NCBI RefSeq assembly: GCF_004135675.1
Contig: NZ_QHLX01000002.1
Coordinates: 62,001-126,000 of the forward strand
Source: Marinitoga lauensis
GTDB lineage: Bacteria > Thermotogota > Thermotogae > Petrotogales > Petrotogaceae
Length of the DNA stretch: 64,000 nt
Direction: 5' to 3'
Part shown: positions 39,286-48,983 of the stretch, piece after piece
How positions within the stretch are numbered: position 1 is the stretch's first letter
Layout: every line of letters begins with the position of its first letter
Made by a program: the position numbers and the translations under genes
Notes under the pieces: model-generated
Told to the model about the DNA's origin: nothing
Seen by the model: the letters and a program-made list of their open reading frames with translations, nothing else
The model's database searches: none

Positions 39286-40329
39286 TCTCCCAACCCCAGC
39301 TCTTTAATCTCATCTTTAAACATATTCCTTAAATTTTCCGGAAGATCATTTATTTTTTTAATATCTCATTTTTTAAGGATTCTAAATTTTTTTGTTTTAT
39401 AATTTCTATTGCCGCAATTAATCCTTCATTATTTAAATAATCAATATTTTCCTTTAATATGTCGGAAATTTCTCTATCCAATAAATCGTTTAAAATAATT
39501 AATATATTATATTTATATTCATTCAATATATCTTTTTTCATTAAACCACATAAAATATTTACAACTTCTTTTTTTAATTTATTTTGAGAGCGCACATTTG
39601 GGATATATCTGGTAAGACACTCGAGGAATTCTTTTAAAATCAATTCTTTTTTTTCTGATTGTTTGAAGAAATTTATACATTCATATATATTCTCTCTTTT
39701 AAAAATATATCTGGCGTAGGGAAGATATAGATAGGGGTTAAAATGATTTTTTAACTTTTCTTTTATTATTTTATCTGTATTATCATTTCCAATAATTGCA
39801 AGAGTCTCTATTACTGTTGAAATCAAAAATGAATTTTCTGCATTAGTCAGTTTTTCAGCAATCTTTTCTGCATATTCATTTGCTTCGAGCAATCCAAGAT
39901 ATTCTATTGCAGCTATTTGATTATTAATATCAGTATCTTCCAATCCTTTTGCAATATAGTGTTTTGCTTCTTTTAAACCTGTTCTATATAAACCATCAAG
40001 GGCATATTTTCTAAAGTCTTTATTCTCTGATTTCTGCAATTTTGCCAGAACTTTTATTTTTTTGAAGAACTCAATAAAGAAAGCATAAACTCCTTACGTA
40101 ACAAATTTTCTTCTTTGAAAAATTCAAAAAAAAGATCATCATCTATATTATCAAGATTTAAATGCTTTAAGGTATGTATAATGGATTCCTGGATAAAGAT
40201 ATCGTTTTCATTTTTTAATAATTTAAATAGATCCAGAGTATATTCCTCTTTATTCTCATTGAGAATAATTTCCAATGCTTTTAGAATTTGTTTTTTGTTT
40301 GATGAAAAAAGCATTTTTTTGATTTTCAT
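39282..40329 (-). CDS. HEAT-repeat protein of the chemosensory operon (two frame breaks)
   Basis: About 349 residues, entirely alpha-helical with repeating helix pairs of about 30 residues: 'KQILKALEIILNENKEEY', 'DIFIQESIIHTLKHLNLD', 'DFRKYALDGLYRTGLKEA', 'DINNQIAAIEYLGLLEAN', 'SFLISTVIETLAIIGNDN'. These are HEAT-type scaffold repeats with no catalytic signature. Breaks occur near 40050 and in the seven-T run at 39353-39359. With the latter repaired, the chain ends INDLPENLRNMFKDEI..., its TGA overlapping the cheR ATG. First gene of the operon; a regulator or adaptor for CheR or the receptor is plausible but not shown. Confidence 0.65.
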
Positions 40330-42224: not shown

Positions 42225-42629
42225 ATGGCCTGGAAAGTATTAATCGTTGATGATGAACCCGGTATAAGAGAAGTTTTAAAAGATTATATCGAAATGAATT
42301 TCGAACATACAAAAATCGAAACAGCAGAAAATGCTGATATTGCTTTAAAAAAAATAAACGAAGACCAATATCATGTTATTTTATTGGATATTGTAATGCC
42401 AGGACTTGATGCTTTTGAATTTTTAAAACGGGTTAAAGACTTAAACTCATTAATACACATAATAATGATCACCGGTAACTCAACAATGGAAAGAGTTCTT
42501 GAAGCTATTGAATCTGGAGCTGACGATTATCTTCTAAAACCATTCTCAACAAAAGAAATAGAAGAAATTCTAAAATGTTCTTTTTCAAAAATTGAACGCT
42601 GGAGACATGCATTTAGAAATTCATTCTAA
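42225..42629 (+). CDS. Response regulator partner of the CheX-kinase
   Basis: 134 residues: KVLIVDDEPGIREVLKDYIE (acidic pair), YHVILLDIVMPGLDAFEFLK (phospho-Asp), IIMITGNSTMERV (switch Thr), DDYLLKPFSTKEI (Lys), and a basic C-terminal tail SKIERWRHAFRNSF without output domain. AAGGAGG precedes the ATG, 3 bases after the kinase stop. All but its first 26 bases lie inside a 433-bp sequence that is repeated exactly on the other side of the adjacent insertion element; this copy is the complete one. Confidence 0.9.
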   Translation: MAWKVLIVDDEPGIREVLKDYIEMNFEHTKIETAENADIALKKINEDQYHVILLDIVMPGLDAFEFLKRVKDLNSLIHIIMITGNSTMERVLEAIESGADDYLLKPFSTKEIEEILKCSFSKIERWRHAFRNSF

Positions 42630-42683
42630 AAGAAAACCCTTAAATAAGGGTTTTCTTTTTACTCAATATGAATATTTTTTATT
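42251..42683. repeat. 433-bp direct repeat, left copy (target-site duplication)
   Basis: From TGATGAACCCGG to AATATTTTTTATT. It holds response-regulator codons 9 to stop, the terminator and the last 25 bases of the convergent nadE gene. By reading, it matches 44615-45047 without a difference and ends exactly at the first base of the insertion element. Confidence 0.93.
42632..42660 (+). terminator. Terminator after the response regulator (copy 1)
   Basis: GAAAACCCTT, loop AAAT, AAGGGTTTTC, then TTTTT. An identical copy sits at 44996-45024, where it also faces the nadE 3' end. Confidence 0.8.
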
Positions 42684-44614
42684 CCTGAGTTTGACACTAT
42701 TATTATCAACAAAATTCTAAAAAGTAGAATTATTCAAAAAAATAGCTATTGTTAACTTTTTATAAAAAGAGAAATTAGCCACACACATCCTCCTTTTTGG
42801 CTTTTCATGCGTGTTTTAGGAGATTATTTTTTTAAATTCATCTAATTCCATCATTTTTTTCGGTTTTTCTATTTTTAATGTTTTTAATATGGCTTTTTGA
42901 AAATCGTTTAAATTGGCTCTTAATGCAAATAATTTGTCTTTTAATCTTATTTCAGAGTATTCCATTTTTTTTATAGCTTCTCTTATTTTTTCATGAGAGT
43001 ATTCAATATTATTTTTTTCCAGTTCTAATTCTAATGTTCTTTGAATTATGTAAGATATGAAACTCATTACAATATGTCCTTTTATTCTTTTCGGTGTCCA
43101 ATGAAATACCGGTCTTGTTTCAAGATAATTTTTTAATGTTCTGAATGTTTCTTCTACTTTCCATAATGTATGATATTGTTCTAATATTTCTTTTGGCGAT
43201 AGTTTTGTGTTTGTTATTATTCCATAGTATCCATCGTATTTTTCATCATTTTCTATTTTTTCTATGTCCAATATATAATTTTGTTTGTTCTGTTCTTTTA
43301 AATATTTTTTCGCTCCTCTTTTACTTTTGGAATCTATATTTCCTTCTTCTAACATTTTTTTCGCTTTTTCTATTAATCGTAGTCTATCTGCTCTGTCTTT
43401 TTTAGCTCTTTCTTCTGAATATATTATGAGTAATCTTTTATTTTCATATTCTACTTCTCTATATTTTATTCCTTTTGCTATTTCTATGAATTCTCCTTCA
43501 AATATATTTACTTTTTTTAACTGTTTTATTGATTTTCCTACTATGAATTCATAATTAGAATTTTCTACTACTTCTATATTTTTTTTACTCATCATTCCTC
43601 TATCTGCTACTACTATTACTTTTCCTAATTGATATTCTTTTTTCATTTTTTCTATTGAATCTTTAAATGTATGCCCTTCAAATGTATTTCCTGCATATAT
43701 ATCAAAACTAACTGGCATTCTATCCTGATCTATTGACATCCCTAATACTACTTGCGACTCATTAAATTTCTTATCCTTTGAATATCCCATTTGTAATATT
43801 TCATTTGTTTGTTGTGTTTCAAACGCTAATGTTGTTACATCGTAAAATACTAAATCTACCGTTGTATTAAACAAACTTATCCTTTGATTATACATATGTT
43901 TTTCTATCGACTCTTTATTATCTGCTAATATATCCAATGTTCTGTATAACCAGTGCAACATTACATCTTTTTCTTCCAGGTCTTTTTCTTTTTTAACTTC
44001 CACTTTGTTATATCCAAAATACTCTAAATTATTAAATATTCCCAATTTACTCTTCGGTTCTACTATTCTATTCATCACCATTATTTTTAACATTTCTTCT
44101 GCATTGTATTTTATTTCTTTATCCAGTCTTTCAAAATATCTTTTCATCTCATATCTTTCAAATATCTTATTTACTATTACTTTGGCTCCGTAATTTCTTC
44201 TTGCTATTTCTTCCATTAAATCATCTTCTATTTTTTCATATTCATCTATTTCAAATATTTTAAAAAGACTATCTACAAGTTTTGTTATATCTTTTTTACT
44301 ATACTTATCTATATTTCCAAAATTTATTACTGTATGCTGTTTCACTTTTCCATTTTCTCTTTTGCTTTCCATTATCCTTAAATATCTTTTTCCTTTCACT
44401 TTTGATATTTTAGGATACATTTTAAAACATCTCCTTTCAGTGGTTGTCATATATATTATACCACCAAAAGGACTAATATATTACTAATTATAGTTAATTC
44501 TCTGTAACAAAAGTTAGCCACACAATTTTTCGACTTCCTGAAAAATACACGCCTCAAACCCGCATTCTACCGTTCCATTTCCCTTAAAATCGCCAAATTG
44601 CTGTCAAAGGCAGG
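42684..44614 (-). mobile_element. IS1634-family insertion sequence, 1931 bp
   Basis: The element is bounded by imperfect terminal inverted repeats: CCTGAGTTTGACA at 42684-42696, and TGTCAAAGGCAGG at 44602-44614, which read outward gives CCTGCCTTTGACA (11 of 13 match). One intact transposase fills most of it. It is flanked by a 433-bp direct repeat. IS1634 and relatives (IS1549) are known for creating unusually long, variable-length target duplications, so the transposase family and the repeat agree. The element landed in the 3' region of nadE, but because the target was duplicated both neighbouring genes stay whole. Confidence 0.92.
42816..44420 (-). CDS. IS1634-family transposase (IS4-type DDE)
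   Basis: 534 residues. DDE residues: Asp in VDLVFYDVTTLAFET (about 195), Asp in KVIVVADRGMMSKKNIE (about 270), and Glu in WKVEETFRTLKNYLETRPVF, the IS4-type Y-(2)-R-(3)-E-(6)-K region modified as in IS1634. VFHWTPKRIKGHIVMSFISY follows. ATG 44420 lies 9 bases after AAAGGAGATG; an in-frame start at 44450 lacks a site. No frame break, so the protein is probably active. It copies the element by cut-and-paste with repair of long staggered gaps. Confidence 0.93.
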   Translation of the reverse strand: MYPKISKVKGKRYLRIMESKRENGKVKQHTVINFGNIDKYSKKDITKLVDSLFKIFEIDEYEKIEDDLMEEIARRNYGAKVIVNKIFERYEMKRYFERLDKEIKYNAEEMLKIMVMNRIVEPKSKLGIFNNLEYFGYNKVEVKKEKDLEEKDVMLHWLYRTLDILADNKESIEKHMYNQRISLFNTTVDLVFYDVTTLAFETQQTNEILQMGYSKDKKFNESQVVLGMSIDQDRMPVSFDIYAGNTFEGHTFKDSIEKMKKEYQLGKVIVVADRGMMSKKNIEVVENSNYEFIVGKSIKQLKKVNIFEGEFIEIAKGIKYREVEYENKRLLIIYSEERAKKDRADRLRLIEKAKKMLEEGNIDSKSKRGAKKYLKEQNKQNYILDIEKIENDEKYDGYYGIITNTKLSPKEILEQYHTLWKVEETFRTLKNYLETRPVFHWTPKRIKGHIVMSFISYIIQRTLELELEKNNIEYSHEKIREAIKKMEYSEIRLKDKLFALRANLNDFQKAILKTLKIEKPKKMMELDEFKKIIS

Positions 44615-44993
44615 TGATGAACCCGGTATAAGAGAAGTTTTAAAAGATTATATCGAAATGAATTTCGAACATACAAAAATCGAAACAGCAGAAAATGCTG
44701 ATATTGCTTTAAAAAAAATAAACGAAGACCAATATCATGTTATTTTATTGGATATTGTAATGCCAGGACTTGATGCTTTTGAATTTTTAAAACGGGTTAA
44801 AGACTTAAACTCATTAATACACATAATAATGATCACCGGTAACTCAACAATGGAAAGAGTTCTTGAAGCTATTGAATCTGGAGCTGACGATTATCTTCTA
44901 AAACCATTCTCAACAAAAGAAATAGAAGAAATTCTAAAATGTTCTTTTTCAAAAATTGAACGCTGGAGACATGCATTTAGAAATTCATTCTAA
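44598..44993 (+). pseudogene. 5'-truncated response regulator joined to the IS end
   Basis: The right repeat lacks the first 26 bases of the response regulator, so strand beta-1 and the first residues of the acidic pocket (VLIVD) are gone. By chance the IS end is open in the same frame: a TTG at 44598 encodes LLSKAG then joins DEPGIREVLKDYIE, giving a 131-residue open frame. No ribosome binding site precedes it. It is most likely an inactive by-product of the insertion. Confidence 0.8.
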
Positions 44994-45047
44994 AAGAAAA
45001 CCCTTAAATAAGGGTTTTCTTTTTACTCAATATGAATATTTTTTATT
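44615..45047. repeat. 433-bp direct repeat, right copy (target-site duplication)
   Basis: Exact match to 42251-42683 by reading. It starts at the base following the right inverted repeat and supplies the last codons of nadE. Lack of differences means the insertion is recent or the copies are kept equal. Confidence 0.93.
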
Positions 45048-45850
45048 TCTCTATATTTTGCTGCTTTTGTTATTTCCATTACCATATCAACTAAATCCTG
45101 TTTTTCATAGGACAAATCTTCATTATTTTCTATTTTTATTAAAATTCTATCTAAATCTTTATATGTTATACCCATTGCGTATTCATCTGTAATTCCAGGG
45201 ATTAAATCTGGCGATGGTGATTTGTTTATTATTTTTTCCGGAATGCCTAATTTTTCTGCCAGTTCAAAAACCTGTGTTTTGTATAAATGCATTATTGGTT
45301 CTATATCAACAGAATCATCTCCATATTTTACATAAAAACCTGTGTTTAATTCTGTTTTATTAGTAGTTCCAACAACAGCGTAATTTAGTTGTTCAGCATG
45401 AAAATAAAGCAATACCATTCTAATTCTATGTTTTGACCTGTAATATGCAAGACCTTTTAAAAACTCTTTATCTCCTTTATTCATTAAATCATTAATATAA
45501 CTTCTTTTTTCAAACTCTTTTTTTACATAATTTTCCTGAATTCTTCTTGGAACAAACCATGTTGGTGGTTCTAATTTATATACTCCCATTTTTTTTAATA
45601 TTGGAGAAATTTTGATAATATTGTATTTTATCCCTAAAAAGTCACATACCAATTTTGCATCACCTATAGTATCTGGTGAAGAATCCCTTTCTGGTAATAT
45701 TAATCCTTTAACCTTTTCTTTTCCCAATGCTTCAACACATAACTTACCCACTACAGCAGAATCAATACCTCCGCTAATACCAATCATAGCTCCATTATAT
45801 CCATATTCTTTTATTTTCTCTTTTATAAACGATTCTATTTTTTTAATCAT
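45023..45850 (-). CDS. nadE: NH3-dependent NAD synthetase
   Basis: 275 residues. The PP-loop of the N-type ATP pyrophosphatases, GISGGIDSAVVGKLC, binds ATP for adenylation of nicotinate adenine dinucleotide. LAYYRSKHRIRMVLLYFHAE, VGTTNKTELNTGFYVKYGDD and DIEPIMHLYKTQVFELAEKL are NadE signatures. No glutaminase domain, so ammonia-dependent. ATG 45850 lies 8 bases after GAGG; an earlier ATG at 45868 is upstream of the site. Its last seven codons and stop lie inside the right copy of the insertion's target duplication. Confidence 0.93.
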   Translation of the reverse strand: MIKKIESFIKEKIKEYGYNGAMIGISGGIDSAVVGKLCVEALGKEKVKGLILPERDSSPDTIGDAKLVCDFLGIKYNIIKISPILKKMGVYKLEPPTWFVPRRIQENYVKKEFEKRSYINDLMNKGDKEFLKGLAYYRSKHRIRMVLLYFHAEQLNYAVVGTTNKTELNTGFYVKYGDDSVDIEPIMHLYKTQVFELAEKLGIPEKIINKSPSPDLIPGITDEYAMGITYKDLDRILIKIENNEDLSYEKQDLVDMVMEITKAAKYREIKNIHIE

Positions 45851-45947
45851 ATAAATCGCCTCATTCATATATTCTTAATTTTATTATAACTCATTTTTAT
45901 ATAAAAATACAAATAATAATTTTGATGTACTGCATAAATAATTAGTA

Positions 45948-47694: not shown

Positions 47695-48983
<1,289 letters not shown>

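What the first reader, a model, noticed from the sequence alone, without database searches (positions are those of the whole stretch)
42251..45047. IS1634-type insertion with an exact 433-bp target duplication that keeps both neighbours intact
Two copies of a 433-bp sequence flank a 1931-bp element bounded by 13-bp imperfect inverted repeats. The first copy ends and the second begins at the element's outermost bases. IS1634 and IS1549 are known for long, variable duplications, far longer than the usual 2-14 bp. Here the duplicated block spans the 3' end of a response regulator and the last codons of convergent nadE, so the insertion cost the host nothing. It is a clean natural record of a long staggered cut or replication-type mechanism.
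Basis: partly seen in the sequence, partly recalled or inferred. Interest (0 to 1): 0.85.

Follow-up and report, generated by a model that had tools for sequence, protein, structure and literature searches.

The report
Jumping gene with long target duplications
A small bacterial jumping gene copied 433 letters of its landing site when it inserted, leaving both neighbouring genes whole; sister copies in the same genome duplicated 28 to about 1,300 letters, and one of their two ends often sits right behind a transcription stop signal, which makes an old unexplained oddity testable.

Summary
Window 42251-42683 and 44615-45047 are identical 433-bp copies that abut a 1931-bp element (42684-44614) whose 13-bp terminal repeats match at 11 of 13 positions. 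The element encodes an IS1634-family DDE transposase. A congener, G004, has the empty site with one copy of the block, so the duplication arose on insertion.

The locus is not a one-off. In the same genome 35 distinct sites of this element and its sibling carry anchored direct repeats of 28-1301 bp, median 207. Two of 26 full-length copies lack one; none has a short repeat. Long repeats also occur in relatives from four named phyla, while other IS1634-family elements read here have 4-7 bp or none detected. Long and short fall on opposite sides of one branch of the transposase tree (93/95).

At both junctions the first outward base is usually A (31 and 28 of 35), so the transposase probably joined both ends. 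A terminator lies within 15 nt of the end on the transposase 3' side at 8 of 35 sites, of the other end at 1 of 35.

Long variable repeats are known for IS1634/IS1549 (8-514 bp), with no model as of 2008 (PMC2266710). The mechanism proposed here is inferred.

The parts
42251..42683 (.). left copy of the 433-bp target duplication
   Evidence: exact match to 44615-45047, abutting the element; single copy in congener G004
44615..45047 (.). right copy of the 433-bp target duplication
   Evidence: exact match to 42251-42683
42684..44614 (-). IS1634-family insertion sequence, 1931 bp, transposase on the minus strand
   Evidence: borders from the repeats and from 26 full-length copies at 99% or more in the same genome
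42684..42696 (+). IRL, the terminal repeat on the transposase 3' side (CCTGAGTTTGACA)
   Evidence: same outer bases in all 26 full-length copies
44602..44614 (-). IRR, the terminal repeat on the transposase 5' side (CCTGCCTTTGACA read inward), 11 of 13 identical to IRL
42816..44450 (-). transposase, 544 aa; invariant D204, D283, E433
   Evidence: NF033559 377.7 bits; PF01609 44.5 bits; invariant columns among 11 sequences; low-to-moderate confidence model closest to Tn5 transposase
42225..42629 (+). response regulator (receiver domain only, 134 aa), whole in the left copy
   Evidence: PF00072 98.2 bits
45023..45868 (-). nadE (NAD synthase), whole; its last 25 nt lie in the right copy
   Evidence: PF02540 219.7 bits; coordinates
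42628..42659 (+). intrinsic-terminator hairpin with T run, ending 24 nt before IRL
   Evidence: inverted repeat I21, 15-nt arms, 100%; scored within 30 nt but not within 15 nt of IRL
44992..45023 (.). second copy of the same terminator hairpin
   Evidence: I22
44598..44993 (+). 5'-truncated duplicate of the response regulator; an ORF opens at a TTG inside IRR. Expression not known

Best explanation
This is an IS1634-family insertion sequence that duplicates tens to hundreds of bases of its target when it inserts. SHOWN: the duplication arose on insertion, it is the rule for this element and its sibling in this genome, and long and short repeats separate on the transposase tree. SUPPORTED: both junctions were made by the transposase, because both show the same first-base preference (A outward). 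SUPPORTED MORE WEAKLY: the IRL junction is biased towards the T run behind intrinsic terminators, the IRR junction much less so. INFERRED: IRL is joined first, to the template strand at or near a T run. The freed 3' end then primes strand-displacement synthesis back into the upstream gene. IRR is joined to the other strand later, wherever the displacement fork has reached, and fill-in completes the second copy. Repeat length would then be the distance synthesised between the two strand transfers, which explains why it varies, why a duplication is nearly always left, and why one junction looks more anchored than the other.
For: Exact anchored 433-bp repeat. Single-copy empty site in G004. The 1301-bp block of another copy (C8:22592) matches one listed place each in G003 and G004, with both flanks in the expected order (list cut). 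24 of 26 full-length A copies have an anchored repeat; 35 distinct A and B sites span 28-1301 bp, 21 of them exact. One B copy sits inside an A copy with a duplication of about 551 bp, so the intact A sequence is a built-in empty site. First outward base A at IRL 31 of 35 and at IRR 28 of 35 (one-sided binomial p 2e-10 and 1.5e-7). Terminator within 15 nt of IRL 8 of 35, of IRR 1 of 35, discordant pairs 7 to 0, p 0.016; random window positions 15 of 4000. Of T-tract IRL junctions 7 of 20 have a terminator, against 36 of 569 intergenic T tracts of the window, p 2.6e-4.
Against: Nothing here observes the order of the two joinings or any DNA synthesis. The IRL/IRR difference weakens when the distance is relaxed to 30 nt (10 against 3 of 35, p 0.065), and the difference in A richness is not significant on the corrected set (p 0.07). 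Among 14 long-repeat copies in other genomes only 1 has a terminator within 15 nt of IRL and 3 within 30 nt (0 at IRR); 10 of 14 have the IRL base and 7 of 14 the IRR base preferred here, and the three actinobacterial ones have neither. Two of 26 full-length A copies have no repeat. Near relatives without a detected repeat exist: both G003 copies, and L114 and L125 with perfect 14-bp ends.
Confidence: 0.5

Rival explanations
1. One concerted strand transfer into a target already unwound over hundreds of bases (R-loop behind a terminating polymerase, or single-stranded DNA at a fork), so the two ends attack opposite strands far apart and fill-in makes the long repeat.
For: Terminators lie at one junction; at 6 of the 8 sites with a terminator within 15 nt of IRL the nearest upstream open frame is read towards IRL. 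The geometry is that of an ordinary stagger, only longer.
Against: Lengths up to 1301 bp need a very long bubble. Local GC skew shows no preferred orientation (14 positive, 19 negative of 33 sites), though it is a noisy proxy for fork direction.
Confidence: 0.25
2. The two ends join two sister chromatids behind a fork, so the product carries a duplication when the sites are offset one way and a deletion when offset the other way.
For: Could give very long repeats. One copy without a repeat (C2:35527) lies in a variable region that is about 0.9 kb shorter than in G001 and G006, though longer than in G004, so a deletion there is possible but not shown.
Against: Deletions should be about as common as duplications, yet 35 sites are duplications and at most one or two could be deletions.
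Confidence: 0.1
3. The terminator association is selection, not targeting: insertions beside a terminator survive because they spare genes and because a bidirectional terminator stops transposase read-through into the neighbour.
For: Many surviving insertions lie at gene ends; by a rough reading of open frames 12 of 33 sites lie between convergent genes (no background was computed). The transposase is transcribed out through IRL, so a terminator there would insulate the neighbour.
Against: Enrichment remains against intergenic T tracts only (7 of 20 against 36 of 569), and the junctions sit within a few bases of the T run. Selection is not excluded.
Confidence: 0.35
4. Pre-existing tandem duplication, later recombination, or an assembly artefact.
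For: The draft has probable indel errors (enolase frameshift; completeness 87.9%), and some copies form arrays on short contigs C6 and C15.
Against: Single-copy empty site; 35 sites anchored at, or within 3 bases of, the outermost bases; the same trait in plasmid records of other species.
Confidence: 0.02

Closest known systems
IS1634 (Mycoplasma mycoides) and IS1549 (Mycobacterium smegmatis)
   Same: IS1634-family transposase; long, variable direct repeats, reported as 8-514 bp (PMC2266710, section 14 read; the original IS1634 paper was not held)
   Different: Repeats here reach 1301 bp; one genome gives 35 sites for two related elements; a terminator bias at one end is shown here. The IS1634 and IS1549 sequences themselves were not compared.
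Other IS1634-family elements (ISGka5 and those read here)
   Same: Same NCBIfam family name; similar element length; terminal repeats starting with C
   Different: 6-bp repeat for ISGka5 (PMC8024623, passages); 4-7 bp in 17 copies scored here
Group II introns with bacterial-C-type proteins
   Same: Insert immediately after rho-independent terminators, with limited effect on host genes (PMC8919778, passages)
   Different: RNA-based retroelements that do not duplicate the target (recalled); here a DDE transposase with only one of two junctions biased
IS1272
   Same: DDE element that targets inverted repeats (PMC5678879, passages)
   Different: IS1272 removes the stem-loop and lacks flanking duplications; here the stem-loop is kept and often duplicated

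Membership tests
IS1634 family | Transposase over the curated cut-off of NF033559 | tested here: met
   377.7 bits, cut-off 100
IS1634 family | DDE triad, long spacer between second D and E | tested here: met
   D204, D283, E433 invariant in 11 sequences
IS1634 family | Complete YREK motif absent, arginine rarely kept (PMC2266710) | tested here: met
   Y426, L429, E433, K440 in the window protein (read)
IS1634 family | Length 1500-2000 bp, ends C-----YT (PMC2266710 table) | tested here: met
   1931 bp; both ends begin CCTG and have TT at positions 7-8
IS1634 family | Target duplication of 5-6 bp, AT-rich (PMC2266710) | tested here: not met
   433 bp here, 28-1301 bp at 35 sites. The same paper lists IS1634 and IS1549 as exceptions, so family membership stands
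Long-repeat group (IS1634/IS1549 type) | Long, variable direct repeats | tested here: met
Long-repeat group (IS1634/IS1549 type) | Transposase groups with IS1634 and IS1549 themselves | not tested
   Their sequences were not retrieved. 11 long-repeat proteins, from this genome's lineage and four named phyla, fall on one side of a branch, 93/95
Group II introns, bacterial-C type (works-like only) | Intron RNA and reverse transcriptase | tested here: not met
   The element's one long gene is a DDE transposase; intron RNA was not searched for

The most novel reading that the evidence does not exclude
A group of IS1634-family transposases inserts by two separated, ordered strand transfers: the end at the transposase 3' side is fixed first behind a transcription terminator, and the other end is joined after polymerase has displaced a strand back into the gene. 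Target duplications of up to more than a kilobase would be a heritable property of this transposase group and would spare host genes by design.
Probability: 0.3. Interest if true: 0.75.

Novelty: new member of a known kind. Interest (0 to 1): 0.6.

Why it matters
DDE transposons as a rule leave a short duplication of near-fixed length, set by the geometry of the transposase (general knowledge). The long variable repeats of IS1634 and IS1549 have been an unexplained exception; PMC2266710 stated in 2008 that no model had been proposed. This genome supplies 35 natural insertions of two related elements, a few empty sites, and relatives with short repeats as controls. That makes ordered, testable predictions possible: which end goes first, what sets the length, and which residues separate the two groups. 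Long repeats also matter for genome evolution, since they let insertions spare genes and offer homology for clean loss or amplification of the element.

Tried and rejected
Replication polarity: local GC skew around 33 sites gave no orientation bias, so fork direction is neither supported nor excluded.

Stronger asymmetry claims: an earlier 33-site table was superseded. One B copy (C7:317478) had been given a wrong right end, because a 78-bp remnant of an A copy lies beside it; its repeat is about 415 bp, not 337. Two further B copies were added. On the corrected 35 sites the A-richness difference lost significance. The GC-skew and open-frame counts were not rerun on the corrected set.

Rows dropped: two C6 copies that share one 117-bp site with C15:3074; the trivial 1330-bp match between two neighbouring copies on C7; partial copies without both ends. 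C11:342737 (nested in another copy) and C2:35527 (no repeat) count among the 26 but not among the 35.

Clade test: treekit's test of the 11 long-repeat proteins alone rejected them as a clade (p 8.3e-5). That run forced near-identical unscored relatives outside the group; a test with those included was not run. An earlier 26-row tree gave 95/96. The root is a midpoint, so 'clade' is not shown.

Naming the host: no call names it. The genome-contig scan found one distant locus only.

Literature: the listings of searches showed no paper that I could recognise as reporting terminator targeting by IS1634-family elements. Several listings were capped (20 of 192, 25 of 113, 20 of 31, 15 of 43 shown), I opened only a few papers, and most subscription papers are not held, the IS1634 paper included.

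Structure: the model has mean pLDDT 67.3, so the Tn5 match is weak support only.

Full report
WHAT IS THERE. The two 433-bp blocks at 42251-42683 and 44615-45047 are identical and abut the outermost bases of a 1931-bp element, 42684-44614. Its ends read CCTGAGTTTGACA and, inward from the right, CCTGCCTTTGACA: 11 of 13 match. Inside, on the minus strand, is a 544-aa transposase (42816-44450) that passes NCBIfam's IS1634 model at 377.7 bits against a cut-off of 100. D204, D283 and E433 are invariant in an alignment of 11 relatives. A model of low to moderate confidence (mean pLDDT 67.3) is closest to Tn5 transposase (E 9.1e-6, TM 0.34-0.41).

BOTH NEIGHBOURS ARE WHOLE. The response regulator (42225-42629) starts 26 bases before the left block and is complete there. 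nadE (45023-45868, minus) takes its last 25 nt, stop included, from the right block. The right block also leaves a 5'-truncated regulator that could be read from a TTG inside the element; its expression is unknown.

THE REPEAT WAS MADE BY THE INSERTION. In congener G004 the sequence runs through regulator and on into nadE without a break and with one copy of the block. A second proof lies within the genome itself: a B element sits inside an A element, and the A sequence on its two sides overlaps by about 551 bp.

IT IS THE RULE IN THIS GENOME. The genome (2.6 Mb, 18 contigs) holds 26 full-length copies at 99% or more (A) and a sibling of about 1915 bp with perfect 13-bp ends (B). Of the 26 A copies, 24 have a direct repeat anchored at the outermost bases; C2:35527 and C11:342737 do not, the latter being nested in another copy. 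Counting each site once and adding B gives 35 sites (22 A, 13 B) with repeats of 28 to 1301 bp, median 207. Twenty-one are exact; the rest are 98.2-99.8% alike or differ by one edge base. None of the 26 A copies has a short repeat of the usual 4-14 bp kind. The 1301-bp block matches one listed place each in G003 and G004, with its flanks in the expected order (the list was cut); it exceeds the 514 bp given as upper limit for IS1549/IS1634 in PMC2266710.

BOTH JUNCTIONS BEAR THE SAME MARK. Reading outward, the first base is A at 31 of 35 IRL junctions and 28 of 35 IRR junctions (one-sided p 2e-10 and 1.5e-7 against a mean A/T frequency of 0.362). If a host repair enzyme had closed the far end, no such preference would be expected there. 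I take this as evidence that the transposase made both joints.

ONE JUNCTION FAVOURS TERMINATORS. Within 15 nt of IRL (the transposase 3' side) an intrinsic terminator pointing at the element is found at 8 of 35 sites, at IRR at 1 of 35; that one is a 43-bp repeat that spans its own terminator. Discordant pairs are 7 to 0 (p 0.016). Random positions of the window give 15 of 4000. Within 30 nt it is 10 against 3 (p 0.065), the window site included; random positions give 28 of 4000. A preference for T runs in noncoding DNA does not explain it fully: among IRL sites with a T tract 7 of 20 have a terminator, against 36 of 569 intergenic T tracts in the window (p 2.6e-4). By a rough reading of open frames 12 of 33 sites lie between convergent genes (no background computed), so selection for harmless landing probably contributes.

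BEYOND THIS GENOME. I read 62 further IS1634-family copies for repeats. Long anchored repeats were found in 14: same-family genomes G018 (105 bp) and G008 (154 bp, 97% alike), Aliarcobacter (682), Persicobacter (33 and 415), Mycoplasmopsis gallopavonis (44 to 400 at six of nine copies examined), Actinomyces oris (54-58) and two Rhodococcus plasmids (21-24 and about 100). One Persicobacter copy has IRL directly behind a terminator. Over these 14 sites a terminator lies within 15 nt at 1 IRL and 0 IRR, within 30 nt at 3 and 0; the preferred first base occurs at 10 IRL and 7 IRR junctions, and the three actinobacterial sites show neither it nor a T run. Short repeats were scored in 17: nine copies of G057 (4-7 bp), three of G024/G025 (6 bp), and Alicyclobacillus (two), Cupriavidus, Geobacillus and Streptomyces (5-6 bp). 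Two more matched at 4 and 5 bp (L106, L210), which may be chance, and were left unscored. In the other 29 no repeat was found or the ends were not resolved: L105, L107-L112, L114, L115, L119-L125, L164, L177, L178, L182-L185, L187, L188, L191, L211, L212, L214. Some of these have clear terminal repeats (L105, L114, L125, L184, L191, L212), so absence of a long repeat is real for at least part of the family, and L114, L125 and the two G003 copies (L111, L112) are near relatives of the window element. The nine G057 copies show no terminator at either end.

A GROUP TRAIT. On a tree of 31 transposases the 11 long-repeat and 8 short-repeat proteins fall on opposite sides of one branch (support 93/95; 94% of 200 bootstrap trees; 0 of 500 label shuffles as low). 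Twelve proteins were unscored; four of them lie on the long side. The root is a midpoint, so which side is a clade is not shown, and treekit's test of the 11 alone, with unscored near-twins forced out, rejected them (p 8.3e-5).

HOW IT MAY WORK. In an ordinary insertion the two transposon 3' ends attack opposite strands a few bases apart. Here the attacks are tens to hundreds of bases apart, yet the outcome is nearly always a duplication and the far end still bears the transposase's base preference. The account I favour is sequential: IRL is joined first, near a T run; the freed 3' end primes displacement synthesis upstream; IRR is joined when the complex acts again. An already unwound target (R-loop or fork) is the main rival. 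Sister-chromatid joining predicts deletions as often as duplications, which is not seen. None of these steps was observed.

WHAT IS NEW. Long variable repeats in this family are known, and PMC2266710 (sections 8 and 14 read) says no model had been proposed. The listings of searches showed no report of a terminator bias or of the split on the tree that I could recognise, but several were capped and the library lacks most subscription papers and the original IS1634 paper. The element is a new member of a known kind; the size of the sample, the split on the tree and the one-sided terminator bias are what make it worth attention.

Noticed in passing
window 47695-48921: The enolase ORF ends in an unrelated tail while enolase-like sequence continues in another frame, so the draft probably has an indel error here; small length differences among IS copies may have the same cause.
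   Followed up: partly
G000 C6:6545-14441 and C15:1052-5003 (L037, L027): Arrays of element copies separated by the same 117-bp repeat, in tandem on C15 and in mirrored orientation on C6; either amplification by recombination between long repeats or an assembly fault.
   Followed up: partly
G000 C7:316636-321230 (L031): Two insertions in succession: an A copy with a 103-bp repeat, then a B copy whose repeat of about 415 bp covers 337 bp of flank plus the first 78 bp of the A copy.
   Followed up: yes
G000 C2:35527-37447 (L041): Full-length A copy with a terminator-like hairpin at IRL but no repeat within 5 kb; its region is about 0.9 kb shorter than in G001 and G006 and longer than in G004, so a deletion is possible but unproven.
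   Followed up: partly
L112 (G003): A complete-genome congener has a copy with IRL at a hairpin and no repeat detected on the other side.
   Followed up: partly
L021 about 2400-2600: A sequence of about 150 bp matches many places in the genomes of the genus searched, apparently a dispersed repeat or a common domain.
   Followed up: no
L214 (Lactobacillus johnsonii plasmid): An identical 153-bp direct repeat flanks an IS1634-family transposase gene, but more than 1 kb from its 3' end and not tied to any terminal repeat I could find.
   Followed up: no
window 39350-40329: Two adjacent minus-strand ORFs that look like pieces of one repeat protein, perhaps another frameshift.
   Followed up: no
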